64,000 bases of DNA from NCBI RefSeq assembly GCF_000250985.1, contig NW_013524650.1, positions 119,093-183,092 of the forward strand. Reading direction: 5' to 3'. Both the position numbers and the translations under genes were made by a program. This document shows positions 2,235 to 57,637 of this stretch, piece after piece. Within the stretch, counting starts at the first letter, position 1; each line of letters begins with the position of its first letter. The notes below the pieces were generated by a model that ran no database searches, was not told where the DNA came from, and saw only the letters and a program-made list of their open reading frames with translations. The stretch is from Nematocida parisii ERTm1 (taxonomy: Eukaryota; Microsporidia).

Positions 2235-2409
2235 CGGTTTATGGTGACCTTGTTTTTTTATTATTGTATTCAGCTCTCATCTTACCTGAATATAACTTGT
2301 CTGCTGCTTGGATATCAAATTTTAAATAAATTAAAATTCTGGAGAAATGCCAATTACGACAAGTCGGTTATTCCCTTGTACATTATTAAGACCCATTCAA
2401 ATTTTTTAT

Positions 2410-2525
2410 TATTCGGGTTATATAGCTTCATTTTTCAATTATAACAGCTCTATAAGACTTTGCAGGAGTGGGTGTGAGGCCCCCACATTAGACACGGTTC
2501 CTGATATGATAGAAACCAACAAGAT
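2410..2525 (+). repeat. Dispersed repeat, second copy at the right end
   Basis: It begins with TTCGGGTTATATAG and continues through a GC-richer core to GAAACCAACA. The same order of blocks (TTCGGGTTATATATAG, ATAACAGCT, a GC-rich core, a CATATGACAG-type block, GAAACCAACA) occurs at 63796-63926 in the same orientation. No coding potential is seen. Confidence 0.6.
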
Positions 2526-2544
2526 TCATTATAAAGGAGATTAT

Positions 2545-2640
2545 TTCTCATCAGTTTCTACATCTACATATAGAGATAACTCAATACTTACATATTATGG
2601 CGCTGTGAATGATTAATTAGAGCAGCCGATTGATTCTGAT
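2545..2640 (+). repeat. Copy of the 775-860 segment
   Basis: Near-identical to 775-860, including the region just past the stop codon of the membrane-family genes and their last codons (PESIGCSN-type end). It shows that gene plus 3' flank were duplicated as a unit. Confidence 0.75.
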
Positions 2641-3049
2641 GGTAGAACAAAATAGTTAGTAACTGATTCTAATGACGGTTAGTCTAACGAATTATCAGAA
2701 CAGCTAGCGATTATATAATGTATTTTGTCTATTCTTGTTCTTCTTATTAAGTGTCTTGAATTAGAACTTTCTTCATTGGCATTAACATTTGATTCTTCAT
2801 ACGACCGATTTTTTACTAGGCTATATTTAACATAAAATCTTTAACTTCTTCCCACCCAGTATTAAAAAAGACTAGTAATAAAATTATTAGAATAGCAAGT
2901 ACAATAATTAGAATAATTACTAAAATTTGAATTATAATAAACCACAACAAATCTATAAAAAAATCATTTAAGTAGTTTGGTGCTGCTGTAGTTGTAGCAA
3001 CTTCTTCTATTGTATTAGAAGTTATTATATCTCTTGTTATATATTTCAT
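2613..3049 (-). pseudogene. Broken paralogue of the single-span membrane-protein family
   Basis: The intact N-terminal frame starts at the ATG at 3047-3049 (MKYITRDIITSN) and covers the hydrophobic span and the TGWEEVKDFMLNIA segment, then stops at 2816. Past the stop, a different frame encodes NANEESSNSRHLIRRTRIDK, closely matching the paralogue's NANEESSNSTYLIRRTKIDK. A further in-frame stop interrupts the tail before it finishes with a PSESIGCSN-like end at the stop 2613-2615. So one frameshift (with a small deletion) and one nonsense change separate it from the 844-1440 gene, and the tandem tail repeats are absent. A truncated 78-residue protein could still be made from 2816-3049. Confidence 0.7.
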
Positions 3050-3911
3050 GGTATTGAAATAAAATATATTAATAAGCATATATGCATTATTTCCTATAAT
3101 ATCATTTCGGATTATTTATGGCGGATAAGGGATTAGGCATAAGAAAACAGGAAAAACAGAAATAAACTCAGATTCATATACACAGAAAGGGCGATATAAA
3201 TATAATAACTTGAAATAATATGAATGTTATGCAGAAATTTAAAGAAATGAAATTCAAAGAGCACTGAGATAGTTTGAATATGCATATTCCTATTAGAATG
3301 AGTTTATAAAAGAAAGACTTATATAATCTCTAACTAGATATTAAAATAGAAATATTATAGAAAGAATTCGGGTCATGGTCTGATCCAATAGAAATGCTTA
3401 TATAAACAGTTAAAGCAATTTTTATTCACTGTAGAATTAACCTCTTCTAAAGAATGCACTGAAGGATTATAGGATGAGCACTGGGCATTGATGCCAAAAA
3501 CATCAGAATAAAAGAGGCTTTCTACAATAGCCAATTTATCGAGTATTAAAACTTTCCTGGGCATATTGGGATATTTCTAGAATTTTAGAAGGTACTGGAG
3601 AGAATATAGACAAAGTATACCAACTCCTTTGAAATAAATGTGCTATATTAGATATACAGATGAGTAATAACAGTATATTAAATATAATCAGAAATATGTA
3701 TAAGTGAACATTTCTGGGATAATTTAGATTATTTCTTTAATTATACAAGAAAGTGTTTATGCTGCGCATGGAAATATTCTTAACTAAGATAATTATTGCT
3801 TAAGTATTAATAAGAGTAAATAAAATGGGGATTACTGTGGTATTTACAGACTAAACTTTAAAGAGAATTTTTTGGGTTAGTGCATAAATAAAACTTTACT
3901 ATAATTTTATT
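3050..3911. other. AT-rich intergenic region
   Basis: 862 bp with no supported gene. A 63-codon minus-strand frame at 3373-3564 has an ATG but no start signal and no recognisable content. This may be decayed accessory DNA. Confidence 0.6.
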
Positions 3912-8844: not shown

Positions 8845-9819
8845 TTATTCTTCTATGGGTGACTCTGAAGTATTTTCTAAAGGGCTCTCTGAATTTAGGG
8901 TTAGATCGGGTTTTACCTCATCAACGCTTTGCTTCCGAATGGGAAGATTCTCTTTCAGTGCACATTCCCAGTCCTTGCACTGGCTGTACGATAATAAAAT
9001 GTTAAACACATGAAGTGTGCTAAGAACAGTTGATGAACTGAGCTTCTGTCTAATTGGCAATTTAGCAGTCTTGAACTTCCCATTAAATAACTTTTCTGTG
9101 TATCCCTTGTGTCTGTTCCTGTCAACTAATCCACCTATCACATAAACACAGTCCTCTTCCATCTCAGTTAATTCATCAGATGCATCAGCAGTTAACACAA
9201 TAATATTCGTATGCGATAAACCATTCCATGCACTATTAGTCACAGAATCAGTCATTGTACAGTTAGTCACTGGCTTATTTCCATTACTCTCTTCAGTCAC
9301 TGGTTTACTTTCACATAGTTCATTAGTTACCTCTCCTTCCTTATTAGTCATGCAGTTAGTCACTTGATCATCAGTCATTGTACAGTTAGTCACTGGCTTA
9401 TTTCCATTACTCTCTTCAGTCACTTTATTATCTGTTACATTTCTGCTTCCTTCTGGGTTGTTTAAGTCTGTTATTGACTCGTCCTTAAACTCAATATTCT
9501 TCCAGTTCTGTACATCTGTCCTGAGATATCCCTGCAGTAACCCTGAATTACCTATGATTAAATTAACAGGTGACTGTGCTACCCTATTAGATGCATATAC
9601 ATACCTTATCTGCTCACATAAACTGCGCATCTCTTTCTCTGTCATTAACTCAAGTCCTCCTAATACTTCTATCCAAACCTTGTACTTTGATGTTACTTGG
9701 TCCTCTGGAGCCTTCTTTCTCTTGGTTCTTTTTGTTTTTTTCTGTTTGTATGACTCTTTAAGTCTTAAATACTTTAACTCCTTTTTCTCTTTCTTTGTTA
9801 GTCTCCTCTTCTCCTCCAT
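8845..9819 (-). CDS. TRM10: tRNA m1G9 methyltransferase Trm10 with a repetitive insertion
   Basis: 324 residues, SPOUT-class enzyme that methylates G9 of tRNAs using SAM. The N-terminus is Lys/Arg-rich (residues 1-35). The C-terminal catalytic signature 'YVIGGLVDRNRHKGYTEK' then 'TAKLPIRQKL' and 'VFNILLSY...DWECAL' is characteristic. Between the two halves of the domain is a Thr/Asn-rich insertion with a near-exact internal repeat (VTEESNGNKPVTNCTMTD twice, 41 codons apart). The upstream GTG is rejected; the ATG at 9817-9819 is used and lies inside the 3' end of the upstream gene (62-bp overlap). Confidence 0.9.
   Translation of the reverse strand: MEEKRRLTKKEKKELKYLRLKESYKQKKTKRTKRKKAPEDQVTSKYKVWIEVLGGLELMTEKEMRSLCEQIRYVYASNRVAQSPVNLIIGNSGLLQGYLRTDVQNWKNIEFKDESITDLNNPEGSRNVTDNKVTEESNGNKPVTNCTMTDDQVTNCMTNKEGEVTNELCESKPVTEESNGNKPVTNCTMTDSVTNSAWNGLSHTNIIVLTADASDELTEMEEDCVYVIGGLVDRNRHKGYTEKLFNGKFKTAKLPIRQKLSSSTVLSTLHVFNILLSYSQCKDWECALKENLPIRKQSVDEVKPDLTLNSESPLENTSESPIEE
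9250..9425 (-). repeat. Direct repeat inside TRM10
   Basis: About 52 bp are repeated exactly, offset 123 bp (at about 9247-9300 and 9370-9423), keeping the reading frame. They encode the repeated VTEESNGNKPVTNCTMTD unit in the non-conserved middle of Trm10. Confidence 0.85.
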
Positions 9820-10105
9820 TATAAAATCTTTTCTTGGCACCCATTCTCATTTTACTGATTTCTCCACACACACCGCACACCCGCATTAAATAATACCCGT
9901 CTGTTTCATGAGATACACGACTGTAACACGTAATACTTGGTATCATAATAGTATAACACTTACATATAGCCCTTTTTACTTCATATGATAACTTTATAAT
10001 CTTCTTATTATGTATCCTTATAAGTACTTGAATAAGTCTCCTGGACACTTTAGTACTCCTGGATATAAAGTGTACTGCTAAGTTTATGTCTCTGTATATG
10101 TCCAT
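9758..10105 (-). CDS. RNase P subunit, Rpr2/Rpp21-like
   Basis: 115 residues from the ATG at 10103-10105. An N-terminal helical part (INLAVHFISRSTK...) leads into 'YEVKRAICKCYTIMIPSIT', then 'YYLMRVCGVCGE'. This matches the Rpr2/Snm1/Rpp21 pattern of helix, R-x-(I/F)-C-x2-C-x(2-4)-L-I-P-G and a second C-x2-C. The first Cys pair is C48-x-C50, one residue shorter than usual; the second is C77-x2-C80. Such proteins bind zinc and are protein subunits of RNase P, which removes 5' leaders from tRNAs. The 3' end overlaps TRM10 by 62 bp in another frame. The start has an AAATTTAT signal and is shared head-to-head with the next gene. Confidence 0.65.
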   Translation of the reverse strand: MDIYRDINLAVHFISRSTKVSRRLIQVLIRIHNKKIIKLSYEVKRAICKCYTIMIPSITCYSRVSHETDGYYLMRVCGVCGEISKMRMGAKKRFYNGGEEETNKEREKGVKVFKT

Positions 10106-10135
10106 ACTTATAAATTTTATTTTTATTTGTGTATA
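10106..10135. promoter_or_regulatory. 30-bp bidirectional start region
   Basis: The whole space between the divergent ATGs of the Rpp21-like gene and the EF-hand gene is 30 bp. It contains TATAAATTTTATTTTTATTT, which reads as an A/T-run start signal in both directions. Confidence 0.55.
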
Positions 10136-10552
10136 ATGAACAGTGCAGTACAGCAAGTCTTTGAAATATTCTCAGATGAGATGAATAATGAATATGTGAA
10201 GAGACAGAATATATTACCATTATTACAGTCATTAGGTTATATTATTAATGAACAAGAATTAAGCACAATATTACCATATGGTAAGGAACTGTACAGCCTT
10301 ACAGATATAAGGAGAATGACTGAGGATAAGGAAATTCCGATACTTACAGTGGAAGATGTGACAAAGGCCTTTCAAGTATTTGATTCTGATAAGGCTGGCA
10401 AATTACCTGTAAGTATAGTAAAAACCATACTTCAATCAGGCACAGAGGGATTTACTGAGGAGGAGACAGATGCGGCACTATCTTTATTAAACCCCACGCC
10501 TGAAGGCATAATTGAGTACACAAAGACCGGGTTATTAAGGAAGGATATTTAA
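10136..10552 (+). CDS. EF-hand protein, calmodulin / myosin light-chain type
   Basis: 138 residues from the ATG at 10136 (the upstream TTG is rejected). It has two EF-hand-like halves. The second has 'KAFQVFDSDKAGKLPVSIV', with Asp at loop positions 1 and 3 and Gly at 6, but Ile at position 12 where Glu is needed for calcium. The first half has no proper loop. Degenerate hands of this kind are usual for myosin essential or regulatory light chains, which bind IQ motifs without calcium. A calmodulin- or centrin-like role is the alternative. Divergent from the Rpp21-like gene with 30 bp between. Confidence 0.7.
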   Translation: MNSAVQQVFEIFSDEMNNEYVKRQNILPLLQSLGYIINEQELSTILPYGKELYSLTDIRRMTEDKEIPILTVEDVTKAFQVFDSDKAGKLPVSIVKTILQSGTEGFTEEETDAALSLLNPTPEGIIEYTKTGLLRKDI

Positions 10553-11349
10553 AAATTTGAAAATTAACAAACGGTTATTTTAATAATAAAAATAATTTAA
10601 GCAGATTATAATAATACGTTATAACCGTATTTACAACCGGATTTATACATTATTTACAGTGTAATTAAGATATTTATGCAATATTTAGAGTATGAATAAA
10701 TATGAATATAACTTATTACACATAGATTATTAATTATTAATTAAAATTTTATTTTATTTATTACACTACAAATATAAATTATAAATCATTGTGTTATTTA
10801 TTATAGCACTAATAGAACAATAAATAATAAATAGTATTTATTACACAATGTGCAATAAGTCCTGTCCTTATGACAGTTCAGTACTTATTACACTACAAAT
10901 ATAAATTATAAATCATTGTGTTATTTATTATAGCACTAATAGAACAATAAATAATAAATAGTATTTATTACACAATGTGCAATAAGTCCTGTCCTTATTA
11001 CAGTTCAGTACTTATTACTTTATAAGATACGTCTAATAAATTATTTATTTATTTGCACACATAAATTTTATTATTAGAATAATCTTACACAATAAATAAT
11101 AAAACTTATTGGTAATTGTGTAATATATATATTATTTTACACATAGTGTAATAAATTTTGCCACTAAAGAATAAATTGCTTAAATTTCACACATACAGTA
11201 TAATAATACTCCCACAGTCTCCTGTAATAGAACCAACCGTATTTATAAAAATAATTTGCCAAAACTTCTAAAATTAATTTTTGAAAGGAACCCCCTTGCT
11301 GTAGTTGTGATCATAAAGAAGTTTTTTAGTAAAAAGTTTTATATCTTCA
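10553..11349. other. Repeat-rich AT spacer
   Basis: 797 bp without a gene. It holds a 127-bp tandem duplication (10760-11013) and further TTACACA/TGTGTAA-type half-palindromes to about 11200. The last bases (AGTAAAAAGTTTTAT) are the start signal of the next gene. Confidence 0.7.
10760..11013. repeat. Two tandem copies of a 127-bp unit
   Basis: Copy 1 is 10760-10886 and copy 2 is 10887-11013; they are nearly identical (one visible difference, TATGACAG against TATTACAG). The unit contains TTACACAATGTGCAATAAG-type partial palindromes also seen in the spacers at 33.2 and 35.6 kb. The duplication is recent, judging by the identity. Confidence 0.9.
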
Positions 11350-13011
11350 ATGGACAACGATACTAAAATAAATCTGGGACAGGAGAACTGGAAAGACTTG
11401 CCAGGACTAGATAAAGTGCCACAGTTGCCTAAAAAAACATCTGTTGACTTATACACAAGACTTCTATTGGACAATGAAGCCTCATGGATTGCCATGGCTA
11501 ATTTATTCAGAGAGTGCAATATGGAGAAGAACATATGCTTTGCATATGAAAAGGCATTATCAAACAATCCTCTGTCAAAGGATGCACTTTCAATGCTTGG
11601 ACCTATTTACAGGAGGAGGAGGGAGTTTGGGAAGGCACTTGATGTATTTTTAAGATTATATAAAGTAATGCAGGGAGAGGACACTGGCACAGCCATAAAC
11701 ATAGCGTACTGTTACCTCATGCTGGACAGATTTTTAGAGAGTCTTGCTTGGTATAAAATGGTTGCAAAGAATGCCTCACAAATAAAGGAGAAGAAAGGGT
11801 TCTTGTGGTACGGGGTGGGTGTATTCTATGAAAGGATGAATAATTTACAGATAGCAGAGGAGGCGTACGCTGCATCTATAAAGATAGACCATACATCAGA
11901 GTATATACCAGAAGTGTACTTCCGACTGGGGGTTACTTACAAGAAGAAAGGGGCAATTACAGCGGCAATGGACTGCTTTGAGTACTTACTGCATAATATT
12001 TCATCGAAGAGTCACCATCCAACTAAGGATGATGTACTGATACAGATAGCACATGCTAATGAATTACAGTCACGTGAGATGGAAGCCATAGATATTCTTA
12101 AAGGAGTGTGCCAGCTCAACCCAAGGCATGAGAAGGCTGCTATGCTTTTATCGTGGTTATATTATAAGGAAAGGAATTGGGAAGTGGCACGGGATGTATT
12201 ATGCACACACCACCCAGAAGCACTCTCTGCATTTTCCTGGTACTTATTAGGGAGGATTGAGCAGAAATTGGAAAATTATGAGGAGGCGTACAGGTGCTAC
12301 AACTTTGCATTAAAACAAGACAGTCAGAATCATATTTATTGGAACAGTTTAGGGGTTCTGTACTTTAACCTGTCACAATATGAAGATGCCATGCGTGCAT
12401 TTAAAGAAGCAAAAAAGCACAATCCCGGGTACGTTGAGGCTGTATATAATTTGGGGGTAGTGCACGAACAATTTGAGAGTACTTTACAGAGCGCACTTGA
12501 AATATATGAGGAGGCCATTGGGATATTCCCAGAGGACAGGCTTGTGCTTGAACGGATTGAAGAGGTTGAAGAAAAATTAACCAGAGAGGGAGAAGATCCT
12601 TCCTCTCCTTATATAGCACCGGACATACCCTTACGTGACGTACTGCCTAACCCAGGGAAGACGCCTTATTTCCTTGCACACTCCCTTCTTGGATACCGAC
12701 CAACTGGGTTTATATTCTCAGCAGCAGAGAAGGATGAGATTGATAAATTAGCAGGGATGTTCCATACGCATAAGGAAGCAAGGCACTCTTATAATTCACA
12801 CCATGAGTACACTGATAATGAAAGAGTCTCCTGTACAAGCAGAGATCCAAATTACCCTGAAGATGTGAATGAAGAAGTGCCAGGGAGAGTACGCCCAGAT
12901 ATGCCTGTACAGAAGGATAGGGATGTTAATACATTTACTGAATACTCTGATGGGTCTAATAGGGATTTTTATGAATATGACCAATCAGAGGAAAGGGTGC
13001 CTGATTCATAG
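11350..13011 (+). CDS. CYC8: Cyc8/Ssn6-type TPR corepressor
   Basis: 553 residues with about ten TPR units at residues 30-405. The run 'FLWYGVGVFYERMNNLQIAE', 'PEVYFRLGVTYKKKGAITAA', 'WYLLGRIEQKLENYEEAYR' and 'IYWNSLGVLYFNLSQYEDAM' follows the Ssn6 repeat order closely, including the distinctive NPIFW-like 'QNHIYWNSLGVLY'. Ssn6 partners Tup1 in a general nuclear transcription corepressor. The C-terminal 130 residues are disordered and charged, and much shorter than the Gln-rich tail of yeast Ssn6. An APC TPR subunit (Cdc23) was considered but fits less well. The ATG at 11350 follows AAAAAGTTTTAT. Confidence 0.8.
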   Translation: MDNDTKINLGQENWKDLPGLDKVPQLPKKTSVDLYTRLLLDNEASWIAMANLFRECNMEKNICFAYEKALSNNPLSKDALSMLGPIYRRRREFGKALDVFLRLYKVMQGEDTGTAINIAYCYLMLDRFLESLAWYKMVAKNASQIKEKKGFLWYGVGVFYERMNNLQIAEEAYAASIKIDHTSEYIPEVYFRLGVTYKKKGAITAAMDCFEYLLHNISSKSHHPTKDDVLIQIAHANELQSREMEAIDILKGVCQLNPRHEKAAMLLSWLYYKERNWEVARDVLCTHHPEALSAFSWYLLGRIEQKLENYEEAYRCYNFALKQDSQNHIYWNSLGVLYFNLSQYEDAMRAFKEAKKHNPGYVEAVYNLGVVHEQFESTLQSALEIYEEAIGIFPEDRLVLERIEEVEEKLTREGEDPSSPYIAPDIPLRDVLPNPGKTPYFLAHSLLGYRPTGFIFSAAEKDEIDKLAGMFHTHKEARHSYNSHHEYTDNERVSCTSRDPNYPEDVNEEVPGRVRPDMPVQKDRDVNTFTEYSDGSNRDFYEYDQSEERVPDS

Positions 13012-13410
13012 ATATCTTAAATGGTTCATTCTTACTGTAATAAAATGGATGTTTTATTAATATTAATGTTTATGAATATTCTGTATTTGAATTATTTAGT
13101 CTGGACACGCCTAGAAGTGCTCAGAATAAGCCTAGAATATTTAAAGTATTATGCATGTACATTAAAAGATAAAATCGGGTTATATCGGGTTATTAAAATA
13201 TTTATAATTTATTCGTTATTATTGAAATTCTCTGTGGAATATGATGAAATCAAAGAAGTCCGGGTTATTACAGTGGGTATGCATAATTCGGGGTATATAG
13301 AATAGTATATTAATAAGTCCTGGTTCTTGTATTATGGCCAATTCCCGAGTATCAGGTATTCTTAAGATAATTCTAATTTAATTTAGAGTAATTCTTATAG
13401 TGTAATAAAT
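13012..13410. other. Spacer with clustered CGGGTTAT elements
   Basis: 399 bp. It has two TCGGGTTAT elements about 10 bp apart (near 13175-13193) and a third related one (CCGGGTTAT near 13259). The 94-codon open frame at 13021-13305 runs through them but has no start signal or recognisable content and is not called. Confidence 0.55.
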
Positions 13411-14661
13411 ATGTTTACACCAATGCGCAGTGCACAGAGTGGAATATTTGATGAACTCTCCACACCGCAGGAGAACAAGCAAAACTTAGTATTATGCGGG
13501 GTAAACACACCGCACAGTCTAAAGCAAATTCATGTACAGTGGGCCGTCAAACTTATAAAAGAATTGCAAATATTTACACTACAGGAGACATACGCAGAAT
13601 TTAAAGAGAAAGAGGATAAAGTACAGGCAAACCCTGCATGGCACGTATCCAGTCCCAGGGAAAAACTGATTTACTTCCAGAAATCAATCAGTGAGAGAAA
13701 AGAAAAAGACTATGCCCCGATTATACCAAAAATAACACTGCTCCTGCAGGCGATAGACATGTACCAGGCAGAAAGCACCACTGAAGTAAGCTGGGATGAT
13801 ATAGTCCTGCCGAAATTAATAGATATTTTAGACCAGCACAACCTAGCAAAAATCTGGCAGATCCCATTTTGCTTTGATTTCCACGATATGCGATCGTGGG
13901 CCATTGCAGTGTCATACGATATCCTGAAAAAAAGGATTCCATGGCGTGCTGTGGTTAAATTAGTGCGAAAAAAAGAAATTCATAAAGTGTTCACTGAGGA
14001 TCTGGACGAGAGTGTAGAAAACACAGATCTGCTTATATCCTTAAGCACGGAAATAGACCTGAATAGACTAACAAAGGAATCAGGCCAATCACAAAAAACA
14101 TCAATAAAATACTTGGCATTCTGTACATTCTGTAATAAAAAAGGGCACATTGTAGAAGTGTGCAATTCACTGCAAAAGCATAAAAGACAGAAAAGCACCG
14201 AGTATACACTTGCAAACTACCAATTCATTGGAGGAGGTGGACGACCATTAAAAAACCCGTCATTTATATACAAAGAAATTGTTTTTTCTGGGCATTCAAT
14301 TACAGGGAGGCACAGCACTGGATCAGATGTAAACCTGCTCAGCTGGCAGATGTACAATAAGATTGCAATAAAAACAGGAGCCGTGAAGATAAAACCCCAT
14401 AATTACGTAATAAAAGATGGAGTGGGCGGAAGAATTCCATCTACTTCTTATATGGAAGGAAGTGTTCATTATAAGAAGAAGTGCGTGGGCGTACACCGAT
14501 TTTTTATAATTAATACAGATGATGAGGCAGAGGCAGATAATATATTTGGTCTATCCCTACTACAGGCACTCACAAAGGTTGACGGACTTACAGTTGAAAA
14601 TATTTCCGAGTGTGAGCTGCTGAGTGGTTCAGCAAGTGGCAGTGGAAGATCTGTGCGGTAG
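13411..14661 (+). CDS. Gag-protease-derived protein, probably domesticated
   Basis: 416 residues, intact frame. Residues about 35-230 are helical and gag-like. A CCHC zinc knuckle follows at C238-x2-C241-x4-H246-x4-C251 (CTFCNKKGHIVEVC). Residues about 285-390 match an LTR-element aspartic protease: 'FSGHSITGRHSTGSDVNLLS' stands where retropepsins have (V/L)-D-T-G-S/A-D/S-x-N-(L/I)-(L/I)-S, and 'IFGLSLLQAL' matches the I-(L/F)-G-x2-L-L motif. The catalytic Asp is Ser302 (codon AGC), so proteolysis is unlikely. No RT, RNase H, integrase or LTR adjoins it. A long intact frame without the enzyme core suggests a host-exapted gag, with RNA or nucleic-acid binding through the knuckle. Confidence 0.75.
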   Translation: MFTPMRSAQSGIFDELSTPQENKQNLVLCGVNTPHSLKQIHVQWAVKLIKELQIFTLQETYAEFKEKEDKVQANPAWHVSSPREKLIYFQKSISERKEKDYAPIIPKITLLLQAIDMYQAESTTEVSWDDIVLPKLIDILDQHNLAKIWQIPFCFDFHDMRSWAIAVSYDILKKRIPWRAVVKLVRKKEIHKVFTEDLDESVENTDLLISLSTEIDLNRLTKESGQSQKTSIKYLAFCTFCNKKGHIVEVCNSLQKHKRQKSTEYTLANYQFIGGGGRPLKNPSFIYKEIVFSGHSITGRHSTGSDVNLLSWQMYNKIAIKTGAVKIKPHNYVIKDGVGGRIPSTSYMEGSVHYKKKCVGVHRFFIINTDDEAEADNIFGLSLLQALTKVDGLTVENISECELLSGSASGSGRSVR

Positions 14662-14750
14662 AATGCAAAAATAATTTTAGGGAATTTCAGATTATTTCTG
14701 GTAGCTTTATTTTTAAATATTGCATTTGCCTGCTGTAGTGATGACTCTGC

Positions 14751-16121
14751 CTAATCATCGGACTCGTCATCTGATTTTTGATTTTCTTGTATGGCTTGGG
14801 AGAGTGCTTCTAGTGTGGTGTACTTGATTTGTGAACCAATTGCTCGCTGTATTGATAAGAGGTCCATTTTGTCTGACTCGCCTGTTGAGAAAGTGATAGA
14901 TACACCTGCTCTATTAAACCTGCCTGTACGACCAATTCTGTGAACGTATGTCTCAATGTCCACTGCTCCAGACTGTTTTCTTGGTATGTCGTAATTGACT
15001 GCTAGGTTAAGCTGGGGCACGTCTAGTCCTCTGCTCAGTACATTTGTAGTGACAAGTGCTTTTGTTTTACCACTCTTAAAATCAGAAATCACCTGGTCTC
15101 TCTGGCTCTTTAATAACTGCCCATGCAGTACATCGGCATCAAATCCGTCCTTTTTCAGATTTTGCTGCACTAATTCTGCCTTGTTTCTTGTGTGCACAAA
15201 AACTATTGACTGTCCTATAGACATCATTTCGTATAGTTTAAGAAGAGTTTTTGTTTTCTGGTTCTCGCTCATTTCCATGTAAAACTGTGTTATGTTGTCT
15301 GGTTTAATGTTTGTCTCTTCTAAATACCAGGTTTTGATGCTCTTAGAGAGCATTGCAATCACTTCCTTCATCTTTACACTGAATGTGGCACTGAATAAAA
15401 CCAATTGCTTGTTCTTTATCTTTTTTACCACAGACACTGTCTGCCCACCCATATCGGCATCTAATAAAGCATCTGCTTCATCTAATATAACCATTTTAAT
15501 TGTGCTATTATTAGACAGCCCGGTGACTATTTTCTTAATTGTTCCAGGCGCACCTATCAATATCTGCTCAGATATCCTTGATACATCCATTTTCTCTACA
15601 ACATCAGGCAGTGCCTGTAACATAGTAAATTCGATTGACTTTGAGAACTTTTCCAGAATAGAAGATATCTGCTTGCTTAAGTCTCTTGTTGGCGTTATAA
15701 TAACTATCTGCGGTGACTTTACACTTTTATCAAGAGCAGACAGTGCACCAACTAAGAATGCAATAGTCTTTCCAGAACCACTGTGGCTCTGAAACGCCAC
15801 ATCCCCGCCCTTTGCTATCTCAGGGATTGACTTTTGCTGTATTGTACTGGGGTTTTTGAACTCCATTGACCGAAGGGCAGCTATTATGTCTTCAGGTATA
15901 GCCAACTCTTCAAATGTCTGCTTGGATAATAGCTCACTTGATAAAAGTGAGTTCTTGTACTCTTCTATGCTAGAATTCTCTTTTTTGGAAACCTCCATCT
16001 GCTGAATCATCTCTAATGCATATTTTATATCATCAGGCAGTTCTTCTGTGCCCTTTTTCTTGGAACCTATGTCCGCTGCATTACTCCCCACAGAAAGACC
16101 ACTCTTCTCATTGTCTGCCAT
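14751..16121 (-). CDS. DBP5: DEAD-box RNA helicase Dbp5
   Basis: 456 residues. The N-terminal extension of about 85 residues precedes 'FKNPSTIQQKSIPEIAKG' (Q motif), SGSGKT (motif I), PTRDL (Ia), DEAD (II), SAT (III), 'TTNVLSRGLDVPQLNLAVNY' (V) and HRIGRTGRF (VI). The Q-motif spacing, 'QSHSGSGKT' and 'NYDIPRK...ETYVHRIGRTG' fit Dbp5, which remodels mRNPs on the cytoplasmic face of the nuclear pore with Gle1 and also aids termination. The convergent neighbour is the gag-like gene, 89 bp away. ATG at 16119-16121. Confidence 0.88.
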   Translation of the reverse strand: MADNEKSGLSVGSNAADIGSKKKGTEELPDDIKYALEMIQQMEVSKKENSSIEEYKNSLLSSELLSKQTFEELAIPEDIIAALRSMEFKNPSTIQQKSIPEIAKGGDVAFQSHSGSGKTIAFLVGALSALDKSVKSPQIVIITPTRDLSKQISSILEKFSKSIEFTMLQALPDVVEKMDVSRISEQILIGAPGTIKKIVTGLSNNSTIKMVILDEADALLDADMGGQTVSVVKKIKNKQLVLFSATFSVKMKEVIAMLSKSIKTWYLEETNIKPDNITQFYMEMSENQKTKTLLKLYEMMSIGQSIVFVHTRNKAELVQQNLKKDGFDADVLHGQLLKSQRDQVISDFKSGKTKALVTTNVLSRGLDVPQLNLAVNYDIPRKQSGAVDIETYVHRIGRTGRFNRAGVSITFSTGESDKMDLLSIQRAIGSQIKYTTLEALSQAIQENQKSDDESDD

Positions 16122-16508
16122 TTTCTAATGTGGTAAAAATATTTTATTTATATACTTATATTTAATAGAAGGCAAGCATGCAGAGACATTTTTATAATTT
16201 CGGGTTATTTCGGGTTTATCATTATTTATAAATATTCCTGTACAACCTATAAAAATACACATATAGTCATAACAGTATCAATAACCATTTGATTATAAAA
16301 TTAATATAAATAGGTATAAACCGTTATTTTAACTAAAATTTGTTTAAAATCAAAATCTTGTTATAAAATAAAACAAATTTATTCTCCAAATACAGTAAAA
16401 ATATCAAAGAATAAATAAATACAAAGTAGAAATATCTGAATAATAAATGAAATTAGCAATTATAATAAAATATATCTGGAAATCATAAATTAATACGCTG
16501 AAATTCCG
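16122..16508. other. AT-rich spacer with CGGGTTAT elements
   Basis: 387 bp. Two tandem TTTCGGGTT elements lie at about 16197-16217, near the Dbp5 5' side. The rest is A/T-rich, and no gene is seen. Confidence 0.6.
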
Positions 16509-17201
16509 TTATTTATTAAGAAAGTACTTTTGGTCTAGTTGTATAAGCTTCCTTTCATATACAAGAATATCTAAAATTCTCTTAACATCATCAAGTGTTA
16601 AAATAACCGAAGATATTTCAGCTCTAAGAAGAAATGCGTGCACGTGCTTTACCTCTGGTAGGGACTCAAATGGAGGAAGTCCGTCACTTCTTGTACTGTT
16701 TAATATCCATTCGTATGCTACATTTTTTATTGCATCAACAAAGCCTGTGTCAAGTTCTGCCTCTTGTGTGAACCACGGACCGTCTCCTAAATCATCTGAT
16801 GGGATTGCATCGTATAGCATGTACACTTTTCTGTTCTGCTTTATAGACTTAACTGACTTAATTAGAAGCCTCTGCTCAAGGGTTTTAAGAAGCTTTGTTA
16901 CAAGATTTTGGTGTAGCCCGCTTTTTGTTCGGATGTCTTTTATCCAGATACCTTCAACACCGACCTCTTTAATAAGAAGATAGATTATTTTCTCTTCTGG
17001 TGTTGAGAATGACTGCGGCTCTGTGTTTCTTCTGTAAACTATTCCGCCTTTTGTTTTAAATACGTCTATGAGAGAGTCTGTGTGCAGGTTGTTTATTTCT
17101 ACTACAATATCCTGGAGTGACATGTCTTTAAATTCATTCTGTATCTCCTGTGTCGTCACTCCAGAGTCTTTTGAAGAAATGAAGTCTAATATGCTGAACA
17201 T
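16509..17201 (-). CDS. RPC34: RNA polymerase III subunit Rpc34 (C34/RPC6)
   Basis: 230 residues, winged-helix protein of the Pol III-specific C31/C34/C82 trimer that contacts TFIIIB in initiation. 'EEKIIYLLIKEVGVEGIWIK' plus 'DIRTKSGLHQNLVTKLLKTL' and 'KSVKSIKQNRKVYMLYDAIP' match the second winged helix and its linker. 'WFTQEAELDTGFVDAIKN' and 'ISSVILTLDDVKRILDILVY' match the C-terminal part. Shorter than the yeast protein (about 317), with the N-terminal winged helix reduced. ATG at 17199-17201, 14 bp from the divergent Pus gene. Confidence 0.88.
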   Translation of the reverse strand: MFSILDFISSKDSGVTTQEIQNEFKDMSLQDIVVEINNLHTDSLIDVFKTKGGIVYRRNTEPQSFSTPEEKIIYLLIKEVGVEGIWIKDIRTKSGLHQNLVTKLLKTLEQRLLIKSVKSIKQNRKVYMLYDAIPSDDLGDGPWFTQEAELDTGFVDAIKNVAYEWILNSTRSDGLPPFESLPEVKHVHAFLLRAEISSVILTLDDVKRILDILVYERKLIQLDQKYFLNK

Positions 17202-17215
17202 CTCAAAATATTTTT
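17202..17215. promoter_or_regulatory. 14-bp bidirectional start region
   Basis: Only 14 bp (CTCAAAATATTTTT-type, near-palindromic) separate the divergent ATGs of RPC34 and the pseudouridine synthase gene. It offers an A/T start signal to both, so any further promoter must lie inside coding DNA. Confidence 0.5.
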
Positions 17216-18496
17216 ATGGTAAGAGAGAGCCCGTGGTATATATACGAATTTAAGGCGTATACAAAGGAAAGATGGGTCGGGTGCAAATTAGTAGACGTAT
17301 TGGCGGCTGAGTTTAAAAGAAGGACCCGTCTTTATTTTGTGCTTGCTGTTGCTTCTGGATCCATACAGATTAATGGGAATTCTGTAACTGATGAGTATGT
17401 ACTAAAGCATGGGGATTTAATTACACACAAGACGCACAGACATGAGCCACCCATACCAACAGATGAAATAGATATATTATACGAAGACAGCGATGTACTG
17501 GTGGTGGATAAGCCGTCTGGTATTCCCTGCCACCCAAACAGCTCGTACAACAAGCATACTCTGACAGAAATTCTAAAGAAGAAATGCGGGCTATCCTTTG
17601 TGTCTGCACAGAATAGATTGGATAAGCAGACTTCTGGTGTGGTGATACTTGCAAAGAGTTCAAAAGCCGCAGTGAAGTACCACAAGAAGATAGAAGAGAA
17701 AGAAGGGTTTAAAATATATCTCTGTAAAGTATCAGGAGAATTCCCAGAGTGTGAAGTTATTGTGAACCTTCCCCTTTCTATTTCTAGAAAAACGTGTACT
17801 ACAACGGTTTTCCAGGAAGATGGCGTTTTTCAAGGGAAACCCAGCATCACAATCTTTAGAAGAGTGTCTGTAGAAAATGGAGAAAGTATATTGGCGTGTG
17901 GACTGGTTACTGGCCGTACTCATCAGATTAGAGTGCATTTACAGGCAATTGGATACCCGATAATTGATGATATGATATACAGCACTCCATACATAAGAAA
18001 GGAGGCACTCATTAACCGAATTAACAAAATAAAAGAAAATACTAGTGAGAGTAAAAGCACAGCTGAAGAAATCAACACAGAAAATAATAATAATCCTACA
18101 GTAGAAAATAAACCACACATAGAGTGTGAAATTACGGGCAGTGCGTACTTGGAAATGGCAGAAGCAGAAGGCGAGCCTTTAACACGTGAATCCGTTGAAA
18201 AGTTCTTAACAACTGAAGACTGCCGCACAGACAACTTTCAAGATGATGAGACATATTTAGAAACCGTATCCACTGAGAATACATCACAATTTATAATGGA
18301 GTCCTGCATGCACTGCAGAAACCCGGAAAGTCTCAGCACTCTACCCAAGTTTTCCACTCTTTCATTGCACGCATGGAAGTACTCTTTAGAAGAGAATGTA
18401 TTCACAACTGCCCTCCCAGAATGGTGTACAGAAGAAATCAATGACTCTCTGTGCAAGGAAATAGAGCAGACTAAAAATAGACTTGTCTCCAAATAA
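17216..18496 (+). CDS. RluA-family tRNA pseudouridine synthase, Pus9/Rib2-like
   Basis: 426 residues. The N-terminal S4-like part 'YEFKAYTKERWVGCKLVDVL' through 'HKTHRHEPPIP' is typical of the eukaryotic Pus8/Pus9/Rib2 group. The catalytic region has 'LVVDKPSGIPCHPNSSYN' and 'NRLDKQTSGVVILAKSS', where the Asp of RLDKxTSG is the nucleophile, and later 'GRTHQIRVHLQAIGYPI'. Pus9-type enzymes make pseudouridine 32 in tRNAs. Residues about 255-426 form a polar, low-complexity extension. No deaminase domain is present, unlike yeast Rib2. Start ATG at 17216. Confidence 0.87.
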   Translation: MVRESPWYIYEFKAYTKERWVGCKLVDVLAAEFKRRTRLYFVLAVASGSIQINGNSVTDEYVLKHGDLITHKTHRHEPPIPTDEIDILYEDSDVLVVDKPSGIPCHPNSSYNKHTLTEILKKKCGLSFVSAQNRLDKQTSGVVILAKSSKAAVKYHKKIEEKEGFKIYLCKVSGEFPECEVIVNLPLSISRKTCTTTVFQEDGVFQGKPSITIFRRVSVENGESILACGLVTGRTHQIRVHLQAIGYPIIDDMIYSTPYIRKEALINRINKIKENTSESKSTAEEINTENNNNPTVENKPHIECEITGSAYLEMAEAEGEPLTRESVEKFLTTEDCRTDNFQDDETYLETVSTENTSQFIMESCMHCRNPESLSTLPKFSTLSLHAWKYSLEENVFTTALPEWCTEEINDSLCKEIEQTKNRLVSK

Positions 18497-18874
18497 ACAC
18501 TTAAATATGCCTATTCTATTTGAATATACTGATGTACTTTGCTTGAATAATTTAAGCTTATTCTGGTCTGGAAATATTCTGGTTATTTATACCACAGTGG
18601 CACATAAATGCAATAATTATTATAATTGTATTTTTATGAATATTATACATTTACACAAAATAATAAAATATTCAAAATAATATAAAAGTCTACTCTAAAA
18701 TACAAATGAAATTGAATTTATGTATTATTTTACGATTTCTACTGAAGCCAGCCCATAACCCGAAAAATATGGGAAGACTATTTGATAATAAAACAGTCCT
18801 ATTAAGTAAATACACAGTATACAGGCACTTTATAATAAAATACTGTATGTTATGGTATTTTAGTGTGGATAGTA
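18497..18874. other. AT-rich spacer
   Basis: 378 bp, no supported gene. A TAACCCGA element lies near 18752. A 70-codon plus-strand frame (18706-18918) runs into the end of the opposite gene and lacks signs of being real. Confidence 0.55.
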
Positions 18875-20848
18875 CTATCGGGTTACTGAGTGTCTTGTAT
18901 AAGACATTGGCGGCTTAAACATTATATCAACAGCCATTGGCGAGCCCATTATTAGCTGTACTTTTTTCTTACAAAATGGGCAGCATGGATTCTTTTTCTT
19001 TCCAAATGCGTCTACAATACATGAAATGTGGACGACTGATCCACAGGAGAGAATGACCACTTGCTTGTTTGAATTGTTACAGAAGGGAATCTTACAGACC
19101 AGACAGTCGGAGAATGCGGTATCCACATAGTTAACGGTCCACTCGTACACAATATTTTCTGCTATGATAAAAACAATCCCTGAGCTCATAGCAACAGACT
19201 CTGGGCGCTTAAAGGTATAACTGTGCTGTTCTGGGCGGTAGGATGACCCAGAGGGACAGTAAAATTTACCGTACTGGATTTGCACCAGATTCATGTTTAA
19301 GTTCAAAAAGTTGAAGTCTTCTTTTGTGATGTTATGGTTTTTTATGTTGAGCTCGTGAAGAACAGGGAATGTCAGTGTGTTTACTAATTCTGTGATATTC
19401 TTTATGCTGCCTGTGTTGTAGTACCGGTCTAGTGCAATGAACTCAAGAGTAAGCTTCTGTATCCCATAAAATGTTATTTTCTGCAGGTTGGTGGCCATGG
19501 CCTTATAAAATGGCGATGTGATGGCAAGCTCTCTCAAGTACCGCAGTGTTCCATTCTTTCTTTTTGCCAGAAGGCATATGAACTCCTCAACACACGAACT
19601 AATACCACCACTGCCCAAGCACTCCTTTACATCCAAGGACTCAATTCTAAGATTATCAATCAGCACACACTGCACTTTTCTTGATAAAGGAATGCTGGGA
19701 TACATTGATAAAGAAATAATATCCTGCGCTACCACAGACCTAACCAAACCATCAATAAATCTAGATGCCTCATACACATTCTGTGTAGTAAAATTGATCT
19801 CACATCTAATCACATCTAGGTTATAGATGTGTCCTAAATAATTCCATTTATTCACATCTATGTCTGTCCCAGTATCCCCTACATCAATATACAAATAATT
19901 CACACGCATGTCTACATACGGAGTATACCGCATAAGCTCTCTCATAATTAAGGATATGTACATGCTTATGCCTTCATGCGGTTCATATATCAAATTGTCT
20001 GGCTTAATAACTATTGCAGCTGCAAGAAGTGGATATGCCGGGTCAATGTAAAAATACACCGGGTGTATAAGATTCATTCCCCATGTTCTTAGCTCTTCTC
20101 TTAATGTTTTAGCCAAAAAAGGAACAGTTTTATTCTGTTCAAAGTATAGTGATGTCTTATACGCCTCTGTCTTTTCTATTGTTTTCAGAAGAGACTGCAT
20201 AACCCGCTGGTTTTGGTTTCCAACATGGTCTATTATGCACTTAAACAGCTTAAACAGTGGGCCCAACATTGTTTTTATAGCAAGTATTTCCAATATGTTT
20301 CCTTCAAGCCGCTTGATCTCATGCACTGCACTAATAAACTCTGGCGAGACATCCTTACAGTGCGTGCGTATTATCTCCAACAACAAAGACAATATACTCG
20401 ATGGAATATATCCTAGACTAGTCTCGTGCACAGTCCGTTTTCTAAGAATAAAAAGCATCTCCTGGCAGATCTCCACACTTTTTTCAAAAAACACTCCACC
20501 ACTCGATATATCAGTCGTGAACTGATATCTAGCACACTCTTTAAGAAAAACACACATAAGATACAAGAATTTGGGATACATTTCATACATTAGCTTTTCA
20601 TATTTTTTGTATATATTTTCAGTGATGTTTTTGCCATTAGGACTCTTATTCTCTGAATCAAGAGCATTCTTAGGGAAGGAGGGAGGGCCTTTAGGGAATG
20701 CTATTTCTTCTGCAAGCAATAAAATGTTTCCCAAGGTTTCTTGTGCTATATTGTCCCCATTCAGAAGTTCTGCACAGATTTCTTTAAATGTATTTTTTCC
20801 TGTTTTTATTCTTTCCCTAATATTTTCCAATTTCTCTTTATCTCCCAT
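18875..20848 (-). CDS. Protein with C-terminal degenerate RING finger
   Basis: 657 residues. No domain is recognised in the long helical N-terminal part. Residues about 590-640 are RING-like: CLVC, then 'SCGSVVHISCIVDAFGKKK', then CCPFC. Against the usual C-G-H-x2-H-x2-C core, the fourth ligand (His) is Ser, so the second zinc site may be incomplete. RING proteins usually act as E3 ubiquitin ligases. Expanded RING families have been described in Nematocida species; membership here is a guess. No signal peptide or membrane span. It is divergent from eIF3i with 57 bp between ATGs. The stop codon lies in a TAACCCGATAG element. Confidence 0.75.
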   Translation of the reverse strand: MGDKEKLENIRERIKTGKNTFKEICAELLNGDNIAQETLGNILLLAEEIAFPKGPPSFPKNALDSENKSPNGKNITENIYKKYEKLMYEMYPKFLYLMCVFLKECARYQFTTDISSGGVFFEKSVEICQEMLFILRKRTVHETSLGYIPSSILSLLLEIIRTHCKDVSPEFISAVHEIKRLEGNILEILAIKTMLGPLFKLFKCIIDHVGNQNQRVMQSLLKTIEKTEAYKTSLYFEQNKTVPFLAKTLREELRTWGMNLIHPVYFYIDPAYPLLAAAIVIKPDNLIYEPHEGISMYISLIMRELMRYTPYVDMRVNYLYIDVGDTGTDIDVNKWNYLGHIYNLDVIRCEINFTTQNVYEASRFIDGLVRSVVAQDIISLSMYPSIPLSRKVQCVLIDNLRIESLDVKECLGSGGISSCVEEFICLLAKRKNGTLRYLRELAITSPFYKAMATNLQKITFYGIQKLTLEFIALDRYYNTGSIKNITELVNTLTFPVLHELNIKNHNITKEDFNFLNLNMNLVQIQYGKFYCPSGSSYRPEQHSYTFKRPESVAMSSGIVFIIAENIVYEWTVNYVDTAFSDCLVCKIPFCNNSNKQVVILSCGSVVHISCIVDAFGKKKNPCCPFCKKKVQLIMGSPMAVDIMFKPPMSYTRHSVTR

Positions 20849-55118: not shown

Positions 55119-55946
55119 ATAAAAATTTAATAATATTCTTTATATTTATACTTTAAAAACCAAGAAATTAAACTATTTTATAAAGTTCTTATTTAATTAA
55201 TTATAGTCTATGTTGTCAACAAATTAAAACCAAGATAAAATTTTATTAAACTAATTATTAATATATACCCCATTGGCAACATATACTGTATTAATAGTGG
55301 TGTATTATGATATATTGTGTAGTAAGTTGTATCCTATGTGTAAAATAAGTTATGATAAGTTATAGTAATAATGATATAGCTGTTTATTCCTTAAAGACTT
55401 AGACATACGAAAACATGTTCTTTATTGAAAACCCAAAACTCTTAAATAGTTTTAATTACAATTACTTATGATAGCAGCATATGCCTAATACTATAACAAA
55501 TTGTTGTATGCTAAGACTAGCATTTGTGTAGCATGACATGAGTTATTGTAATGTTTACATAAACAGGATAACACAAATTAAATCGATTGTACGGTCTACA
55601 AATACATATACAAATTAAATAAAGGTTAAAGTTTAAGAATGCCTTTTCCTAAGAAAACAACTTAAATACTGAATAGCTATATATTAATATCATACTCAAC
55701 CATTGCTATTCTGGATCTTACTATCCAAAACCAACAAAACTAATATTATTTAACTGTTAAATACTTCAGTTATTTTGTATATTCAATTACAATAATTTTG
55801 CTATATTGACAGTTAATTTGTCCATTAAGTTTGTATTTATAATTAAAATTTGAAATACTTTTGCTATCATCTTTATATGTGCTTAGCTAGATCTAGTTAT
55901 ATGATAATACAAAAGCAATAAATAAAAATTATTTTTTAGAGCTTAA
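55119..55946. other. Spacer containing the unoccupied LTR target copy
   Basis: 828 bp between divergent unknown genes. 55377-55750 is the paralogous copy of the segment that carries the solo LTR at 53.4 kb. TTACAC-like half-palindromes occur near 55310-55345. No gene. Confidence 0.7.
55377..55750 (+). repeat. Paralogous segment without the LTR
   Basis: 55377-55443 matches the left arm at 53380-53445, and TAAATAGTTTTAATT continues directly after CTCTT (55439-55443), where the other copy has 340 bp of LTR. The block from about 55678 matches 53857 onward. It represents the pre-insertion state of the sequence. Confidence 0.8.
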
Positions 55947-56798: not shown

Positions 56799-57637
56799 TA
56801 TAATACCTTATTTCTAAGTATTTAAGCATATTATGTAAGGCATAAATAATATTTTATTTTAATAAATTATGCATAGTTCACATATTATATTGTATTTGGT
56901 TATATAAAGTGCATATAAATAGAATTAATAATAGAATATTTAAGAAAATAAGATTTTTCTTTGAAATTGAATCTTGGAATGTGCATACTGGTAAAATATA
57001 ACAGATGGCTATGTTTAAATAAACTACTTTAAATTATTATGGTGTATAATTAGATATTTTTGAAGACCTTGCGTATTTTATGTATTTATTATTTCTTACC
57101 CATAGTGCCTGTGCACATCAGACTATTTATTTCAGTCTGGTTCATTGGATATTTTCAGCTTAACTATTTAAATTTGGTTTTTATTTAAAAGTACAAAGAA
57201 TGTCTTACTAATAATAGAAAACAGAATGCATTAATATAATGAACTTCTTCTACACTGTCCTATTATACGGATTCTTGATATTTTTGTTTTTTTGTATAAG
57301 TATTATATTTAAAGTATTTATAATTTATACAGTCTATAGAACACTATAAATAAAATGAAGAGTTTATGTATTAATATGCCTCAGAAATAGATCTGTCAGT
57401 GCCTGTGCAGTTTCCAGTGGGTTTTAGTACCTTCCACCGCACGCTCCCAGGGTCTTTTCATCATCGGCAGAATCTATTGATTCTTAAGCGCACATGCTTT
57501 TTGTACTGTTTTTGCTACTTACATTTTTAGTATTTTAGTTAAAGCCTTGCCATTAATTACTGGCATAATAAAGTCTTGGTCGGTATTAAGTTCTTATTTA
57601 TTAGATGGTTTGGGTTTAGCGTTTGATAAGTGCTAAT
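56799..57637. other. Spacer with a candidate RNA gene
   Basis: 839 bp. Mostly AT-rich, with a hairpin CAGACT...AGTCTG at about 57119-57139 and a GC-richer stretch at 57385-57480 that contains the snoRNA-like candidate. No protein-coding frame is seen. Confidence 0.55.
57389..57475 (-). ncRNA. Candidate box C/D snoRNA
   Basis: On the minus strand, an ATGATGA C box (57464-57458) and a CTGA D box (57399-57396) lie about 58 nt apart. They are enclosed by a terminal stem AGATTCTG/CAGATCT with one bulged base. The stretch is GC-richer than its surroundings and non-coding. Possible internal C'/D' boxes are weak, and the rRNA target of the guide upstream of the D box (ACTGCACAGGCA) was not identified. 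Short boxes can occur by chance, so this is tentative. Confidence 0.33.

What the first reader, a model, noticed from the sequence alone, without database searches (positions are those of the whole stretch)
13411..14661. Intact gag-protease gene with catalytic Asp replaced by Ser: a likely domesticated retroelement protein
A 416-codon intact frame carries a CCHC zinc knuckle (residues 238-251) and a retropepsin-like fold whose D-T-G reads S-T-G-S-D (Ser302). RT and integrase are gone and no LTR flanks it. Loss of the active site with preservation of the rest of the frame suggests selection for a non-proteolytic role such as RNA binding or capsid formation, as in Arc or PNMA-type genes. To my knowledge nothing of this kind is described for a microsporidian.
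Basis: partly seen in the sequence, partly recalled or inferred. Interest (0 to 1): 0.78.

Follow-up and report, generated by a model that had tools for sequence, protein, structure and literature searches.

The report
Conserved retroelement-derived protein with disarmed protease
A parasite of nematode worms carries a single intact gene that descends from a virus-like mobile element, has lost the key residue of its protease, and is kept with exactly that loss in several related species, which suggests the parasite has put it to a use of its own.

Summary
Window 13411-14661 (+) is an intact 416-codon ORF with a CCHC knuckle and a retropepsin-fold domain in which Ser302 stands where the catalytic Asp belongs. 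It is single-copy in its genome, without LTRs, RT or integrase. Protein searches found six sequences, Nematocida wherever named: four species including this one, plus two unnamed records. GRHSTGSD, Ser302 included, is identical in 6 of 6, though pairs are only 44-61% identical overall. The knuckle is complete in 5 of 6. The predicted protease domain matches retroviral proteases, and sequence profiles relate it to Ty3/gypsy elements of the same genome, one of which keeps Asp-Ser-Gly at that position. Best reading: a co-opted Gag-protease whose protease became a non-cleaving module. Capsid formation is unproven: the predicted N-terminal domain matched no solved capsid among the rows shown, and its Gag ancestry rests on a weak profile match. 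Synteny and dN/dS could not be tested; no DNA of other Nematocida was reachable. Specific roles (RNA-binding assembly, or restrictor of the genome's own LTR elements) are inference. A young gag-only LTR element and an over-represented 8-base motif were noticed in passing.

The parts
13411..14661 (+). intact ORF, 416 codons plus stop: Gag-like protein with disarmed retropepsin domain
13411..13518 (+). N-terminal tail, residues 1-36, unconserved (mean pairwise identity 0.20; holds both differences, residues 4 and 21, from the N. parisii ERTm3 protein)
13519..14082 (+). all-helical domain, residues 37-224, in the place of Gag capsid; mean pairwise identity 0.61
   Evidence: profile match to Gags of this genome's elements, (weak alone: hhalign probability 13%, and not significant)
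14122..14163 (+). CCHC zinc knuckle, residues 238-251 (complete in 5 of 6 homologous sequences)
14263..14580 (+). retropepsin-fold domain, residues 285-390
   Evidence: profile match to the protease of L014
14305..14328 (+). GRHSTGSD, residues 299-306, identical in 6 of 6; Ser302 (14314-14316) in place of the catalytic Asp; Thr303-Gly304 kept
14542..14562 (+). IFGLSLL, residues 378-384, position of the second conserved retropepsin motif (two hydrophobic residues and Gly before the helix)
   Evidence: motif recalled

Best explanation
A Gag-protease segment of a Ty3/gypsy-type LTR element was captured as a single host gene in an ancestor of several Nematocida species and has been kept as a protein-coding gene since. 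Shown here: the architecture, the retropepsin fold (predicted), the altered active site in all six sequences, single copy in this genome, no LTR or pol, and relation of the protease to elements of the same genome. Inferred: the protein works without cutting. The helical domain self-associates or contacts other Gags, the knuckle binds RNA, and the former protease serves as a rigid binding or dimerising module (Thr303-Gly304, the 'fireman's grip' element of retropepsins, is invariant). The result would be a ribonucleoprotein assembly that never undergoes proteolytic maturation. I give domestication about 0.85 and this particular way of working about 0.4.
For: Six homologous sequences, Nematocida wherever named (N. 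parisii, minor, ausubeli, major) plus two unnamed, pairwise identity 0.436-0.610, all without stops. If their amino-acid differences were neutral, 13.5-24.2 stop codons would be expected per pair (15 pairs, rough model). Constraint follows domains: CA-like 0.61, CCHC 0.72, PR 0.50, linkers 0.15 and 0.26. GRHSTGSD is the longest invariant run (8 columns; a fraction 0.0024 of 20,000 column permutations do as well). One place in the genome; its DNA has one other match, a 55-base upstream stretch. Retropepsin fold. The family profile hits the protease of one element locus, held as L005, L020 and L031 and lying in L014 (E 2.8e-5 among 316 ORFs), with Ser302 on the Asp of LDSGAD. The PR-only profile gives 1.7e-5 for it; the best unrelated ORF of 245 in the window has 4.5 bits. 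Profile-profile match over 269 columns (CA, knuckle, PR in order): probability 86%, E 4.7e-6 for one comparison, score 51.7 against at most 24.3 in 100 column shuffles and 16.5 reversed. The Ser/Thr after the Asp matters for dimerising in PEG10 and HIV-1 protease (passages of PMC7212762); Thr is kept here.
Against: Broken orthologues would not appear in a protein database, so six open frames are a biased sample. Synteny and dN/dS untested. One of six sequences (P0005) lacks the end of the knuckle, and P0006 is annotated as partial. The N-terminal domain has no capsid match in solved structures shown. Its profile match to element Gags has hhalign probability 13% (E 0.0021), and its own profile is not significant against single ORFs (L027 8.4 bits, an unrelated window ORF 7.5 bits). 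The single comparison with L014 protease has probability 62%. The knuckle-only profile does not separate element knuckles (6.3 bits) from an unrelated window ORF (6.4 bits). The full-length model is poor outside the protease (mean pLDDT 53). Outer strands that dimerise many retropepsins would lie in or next to poorly conserved stretches, so dimerising is a guess. Expression unknown.
Confidence: 0.7

Rival explanations
1. Retroelement restrictor. The host keeps a Gag-like protein that enters particles of resident Ty3/gypsy elements and poisons them; a protease half without its Asp would pair with element proteases and give one-Asp, dead dimers. It works like yeast Ty1 p22 (Gag-derived trans-dominant inhibitor), with a protease arm added.
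For: The genome has five RT loci with RT-RNase H domains, a gag-only element with two 100% identical LTRs and at least 40 further matches of that LTR, 33 of them 180 bases or longer, so retrotransposition was recent. The protein is related to those elements' protease and, less strongly, Gag. p22 acts through Gag-Gag contacts (abstract of PMC4599808).
Against: Identity to the present elements is low (18-20% in the aligned parts), so co-assembly is doubtful. Restriction factors in an arms race usually vary at the contact surfaces (recalled), whereas the active-site block is invariant. No functional data.
Confidence: 0.2
2. RNA-binding regulator only. The knuckle and basic stretch bind RNA, and the CA-like and PR folds are scaffolding without assembly.
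For: CCHC is the most conserved whole domain (0.72), followed by a basic stretch (KHKRQK).
Against: The helical domain (0.61) and the PR domain (0.50) are also kept, and P0005 has a damaged knuckle in an open frame.
Confidence: 0.15
3. Still part of a mobile element: a non-autonomous Gag-only or Gag-PR element, or the 5' piece of a recent insertion, moved by other elements.
For: Such an element exists about 17 kb outside the window on the same contig (L034: gag-only ORF between identical 203-nt repeats).
Against: Single copy; no LTR pair in window 9000-19000 with the search that finds them at L034 and L017; LTRs of L034 and L017 have no significant match near the gene; one cluster per named species in the protein search, though clusters hide copies above 90% identity.
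Confidence: 0.05
4. Ancient cellular retropepsin (Ddi1-like) with a knuckle, not derived from an LTR element.
Against: Retroviral proteases reach a higher Z (10.4), and order and sequence of helical domain, knuckle and protease match element Gag-PR. No ubiquitin-like domain found by Pfam.
Confidence: 0.07

Closest known systems
Gag-protease part of Ty3/gypsy-type elements of the same genome (L013, L014, L017)
   Same: order of helical domain, CCHC and protease in L013; protease region of L014 aligned without a gap at the active site
   Different: those loci carry RT, and L017 has paired repeats; L014 keeps Asp-Ser-Gly, L013 reads D-S-S, L017 has no D-S-G there; the window gene is single-copy, LTR-free and ends after the protease
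PEG10 (mammals)
   Same: domesticated retroelement Gag with a retropepsin domain (passages of PMC7212762); knuckle and Ty3/gypsy origin: abstract listing and recall
   Different: PEG10 protease is active (D-S-G-A) and made by frameshift; here one frame and no catalytic Asp
ASPRV1/SASPase (mammals)
   Same: one-frame Gag-like plus retropepsin protein from a retrotransposon (passages of PMC11402058)
   Different: ASPRV1 is a self-cleaving, active protease (abstract start)
Arc / dArc (animals)
   Same: domesticated Ty3/gypsy Gag (passages of PMC6525542); an 'Activity-regulated cytoskeleton associated protein 1' (6tap; Drosophila dArc1 by recall) is the only PDB sequence match of the family profile with E below 1, and it is not significant (E 0.27, knuckle region)
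   Different: no protease domain in Arc (recalled); capsid fold not shown here
Ty1 p22 restriction factor (yeast)
   Same: Gag-derived protein, possible model for trans-dominant action (abstract of PMC4599808)
   Different: p22 is made by Ty1 itself and equals the C-terminal half of a Ty1/copia Gag; no protease domain

Membership tests
co-opted (domesticated) LTR-element gag gene | single copy, no LTRs, no pol | tested here: met
co-opted (domesticated) LTR-element gag gene | intact homologues in several species | tested here: met
   6 sequences without stops, four named Nematocida species, one record annotated as partial
co-opted (domesticated) LTR-element gag gene | same chromosomal place in other species | not testable with these tools
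   no DNA of other Nematocida reachable; the locus tag of a neighbour's homologue comes from another assembly
co-opted (domesticated) LTR-element gag gene | dN/dS below 1 | not testable with these tools
   no coding DNA of homologues; only indirect evidence from frames and domain-wise conservation
co-opted (domesticated) LTR-element gag gene | descent from an LTR element Gag-Pro | tested here: met
   profile match over CA-like region, knuckle and PR, probability 86%, E 4.7e-6 with shuffled controls; mainly carried by the protease; the gag part alone is weak, probability 13%, E 0.0021
co-opted (domesticated) LTR-element gag gene | expressed as a host protein | not tested
   no transcript or proteome data reachable; supplementary files were outside the caps
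active retropepsin (clan AA aspartic peptidase) | retropepsin fold | tested here: met
   predicted model
active retropepsin (clan AA aspartic peptidase) | catalytic Asp in D-[ST]-G | tested here: not met
   S-T-G in 6 of 6
Arc/PNMA/Ty3-type capsid protein | two-lobed helical capsid fold | tested here: inconclusive
Arc/PNMA/Ty3-type capsid protein | forms particles | not testable with these tools
   bench experiment
non-autonomous gag-only LTR element | paired LTRs around the ORF | tested here: not met

The most novel reading that the evidence does not exclude
A genus of microsporidia has built its own Arc-like particle or RNP protein from a retrotransposon, in which the protease site was rebuilt, not merely lost: the invariant R-H-S-T-G-S-D block acts as a new binding (or reactive) site, and the protein either packages RNA or polices the genome's recently moving LTR elements.
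Probability: 0.2. Interest if true: 0.85.

Novelty: new variant of a known kind. Interest (0 to 1): 0.6.

Why it matters
Microsporidian genomes are models of extreme gene loss, so keeping a retroelement-derived gene through several species splits would mean it earns its place. Domesticated Gag-protease genes are best known from mammals (recalled), and the two whose papers were consulted in passages here, PEG10 and ASPRV1, keep an active protease. A family with the site uniformly disarmed, yet holding the longest invariant run of the protein, is a natural test case for what a retropepsin fold does without cutting, and for Gag-based control of LTR elements in a tiny eukaryotic genome.

Full report
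What was checked. The ORF at 13411-14661 (+) is real and intact, 416 codons, with the knuckle and the S-T-G-S-D stretch at the stated residues. It lies between a TPR-protein gene (11350-13011, +) and a DEAD-box helicase gene (14751-16121, -); 89 bases separate its stop from that of the convergent helicase, so no pol follows.

Organism. The window lies in a 3.98-Mb, 11-contig genome. The best protein hit, N. parisii ERTm3 NEQG_01894, differs at 2 of 416 residues, 4 and 21, both in the unconserved N-terminal tail; so the window is very probably from an N. parisii strain.

Copy number and surroundings. The protein has one place in the genome, and so has its DNA, apart from a 55-base intergenic stretch upstream that matches one other place. 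Direct-repeat search of window 9000-19000 (minimum 40 bases) found only a 127-nt tandem duplication at 10755-11008 and a 55-nt repeat at 9247 and 9370 inside the 8845-9840 gene; in the same call it found 216-nt repeats (98%) around L017 and 203-nt repeats (100%) around L034. It found no such pair at L014, an RT-bearing locus, so absence of a pair alone does not prove domestication. LTRs of L034 and L017 have no significant match near the gene.

Homologues. Protein search returned six, and search with their alignment returned the same six: N. parisii, N. minor NEMIN01_1383, N. ausubeli NEAUS06_1667, N. major NEMAJ01_1718 (partial), and two unnamed records. Pairwise identities run from 0.436 to 0.610 over 15 pairs. 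GRHSTGSD is identical in 6 of 6, Ser302 included. C238, C241 and H246 are in 6 of 6; the fourth knuckle ligand is missing in 1 of 6 (P0005). Conservation follows domains and collapses in linkers. A rough neutral count gives 13.5 to 24.2 expected stops per pair, and none is present, with the caveat that a protein database shows only open frames.

Relation to LTR elements. The genome has 6 loci matching the RT model. Five of them (L012, L013, L014, L015, L017) also match RT-RNase H models, which I take for the Ty3/gypsy kind from recall; the sixth (L016) I take for telomerase, from recall, untested. A published survey includes 4 N. [quoted passage not shown] The family profile matches the protease of the L014 locus at E 2.8e-5 among 316 ORFs of the fetched loci, and the alignment sets S302-T303-G304-S305-D306 against D-S-G-A-D. 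A PR-only profile gives 1.7e-5 for it; the L017 locus (0.036-0.043) and the L013 locus (0.078) follow, with one unrelated ORF between them (0.073), and the best unrelated window ORF has 4.5 bits. Profile-profile comparison aligns CA-like region, knuckle and protease in order (probability 86%, E 4.7e-6 for one comparison). Score 51.7 stands against at most 24.3 in 100 column shuffles and 16.5 for the reversed alignment. The gag part alone scores 31.7 (probability 13%, E 0.0021), with a shuffle maximum of 27.0, so it is suggestive only; as HMM against single ORFs it is not significant, and neither is the knuckle alone.

How it may work. In retropepsins each monomer gives one Asp, and the following Thr or Ser makes the 'fireman's grip'. 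In PEG10 the Asp mutant stopped self-cleavage, and the authors infer that the Ser mutant cannot dimerise (passages of PMC7212762). Here the Asp is gone, while Thr-Gly and the Asp three residues after the Thr (HIV-1 Asp29 position, recalled) are invariant. I infer a fold kept for binding, not for cutting. With a knuckle and a Gag-like helical domain, an RNA-binding assembly is the simplest reading (about 0.4). A trans-dominant restrictor of resident elements, as p22 is for Ty1 (abstract of PMC4599808), is the main rival (0.2). The genome shows recent LTR-element movement: L034 has identical LTRs, and that LTR has 42 matches in all, with 40 of 49 candidates scored.

Novelty. Paper searches gave: domesticated gag in microsporidia, 14 papers, none describing such a gene by title, two of them opened in passages; co-opted LTR capsid in microsporidia, 1 paper, not opened; Nematocida with gypsy elements, 5 papers, one opened; the four locus tags, none. 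A broader search held 1,228 papers, of which the 25 listed have no 'Nematocida', so it says little. A fungal co-option screen left Microsporidia out of its species tree (figure legend seen in passages of PMC10799480). A survey of co-opted gag genes (Wang and Han 2021) is not held, so it could list this gene. Closest known kinds are domesticated Gag-PR genes such as PEG10 and ASPRV1; the difference is the uniformly disarmed yet invariant site. I therefore rate it a new variant of a known kind.

Limits. No synteny, no codon-level test, no expression data; six sequences only, one of them the same species. Homologues in other microsporidia were not returned, but the protein search needs shared short words and similar length.

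Noticed in passing
L034 (G000:C5:98500-104000), ORF 2259-3167 (-); outside the window: A gag-only ORF (302 aa, CCHC knuckle) between two 100% identical 203-nt repeats, with a likely 5-base target-site duplication: a young non-autonomous LTR element. The repeat has 42 matches in the genome (40 of 49 candidates scored), 35 of them 180 bases or longer. Besides its own pair, two same-strand pairs of such long copies lie within 10 kb of each other, so most look like solo LTRs; their flanks were not examined.
   Followed up: partly
window 55502-55662: A degraded copy (73%) of the L034 LTR, probably a solo LTR.
   Followed up: no
window, 23 places, e.g. 13176, 13186, 13261: The 8-mer CGGGTTAT occurs 23 times where 0.71 is expected from shuffles (0 of 100 shuffles reach it); TCGGGTTA occurs 22 times where 0.50 is expected. 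Three copies of the first lie in the 400 bases before the gene. Possibly a promoter or regulatory motif.
   Followed up: partly
L013 and L017 protease regions: Proteases of two resident elements also depart from D-[ST]-G (L013 reads D-S-S-A; L017 has no D-S-G at the position), while L014 keeps D-S-G.
   Followed up: partly
L027/L035 (G000:C1:83500-89000): A 439-codon open frame (stop to stop) with a Gag-like N-terminal half and a long tail of short charged repeats; no CCHC knuckle seen.
   Followed up: no
window 10755-11008: A 127-nt stretch duplicated in tandem at 98% identity in an intergenic region.
   Followed up: no
window 56834-56883: A 50-base match (98%) to a stretch that occurs twice in L012, once overlapping the start of its polyprotein frame and once just after its end.
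   Followed up: no
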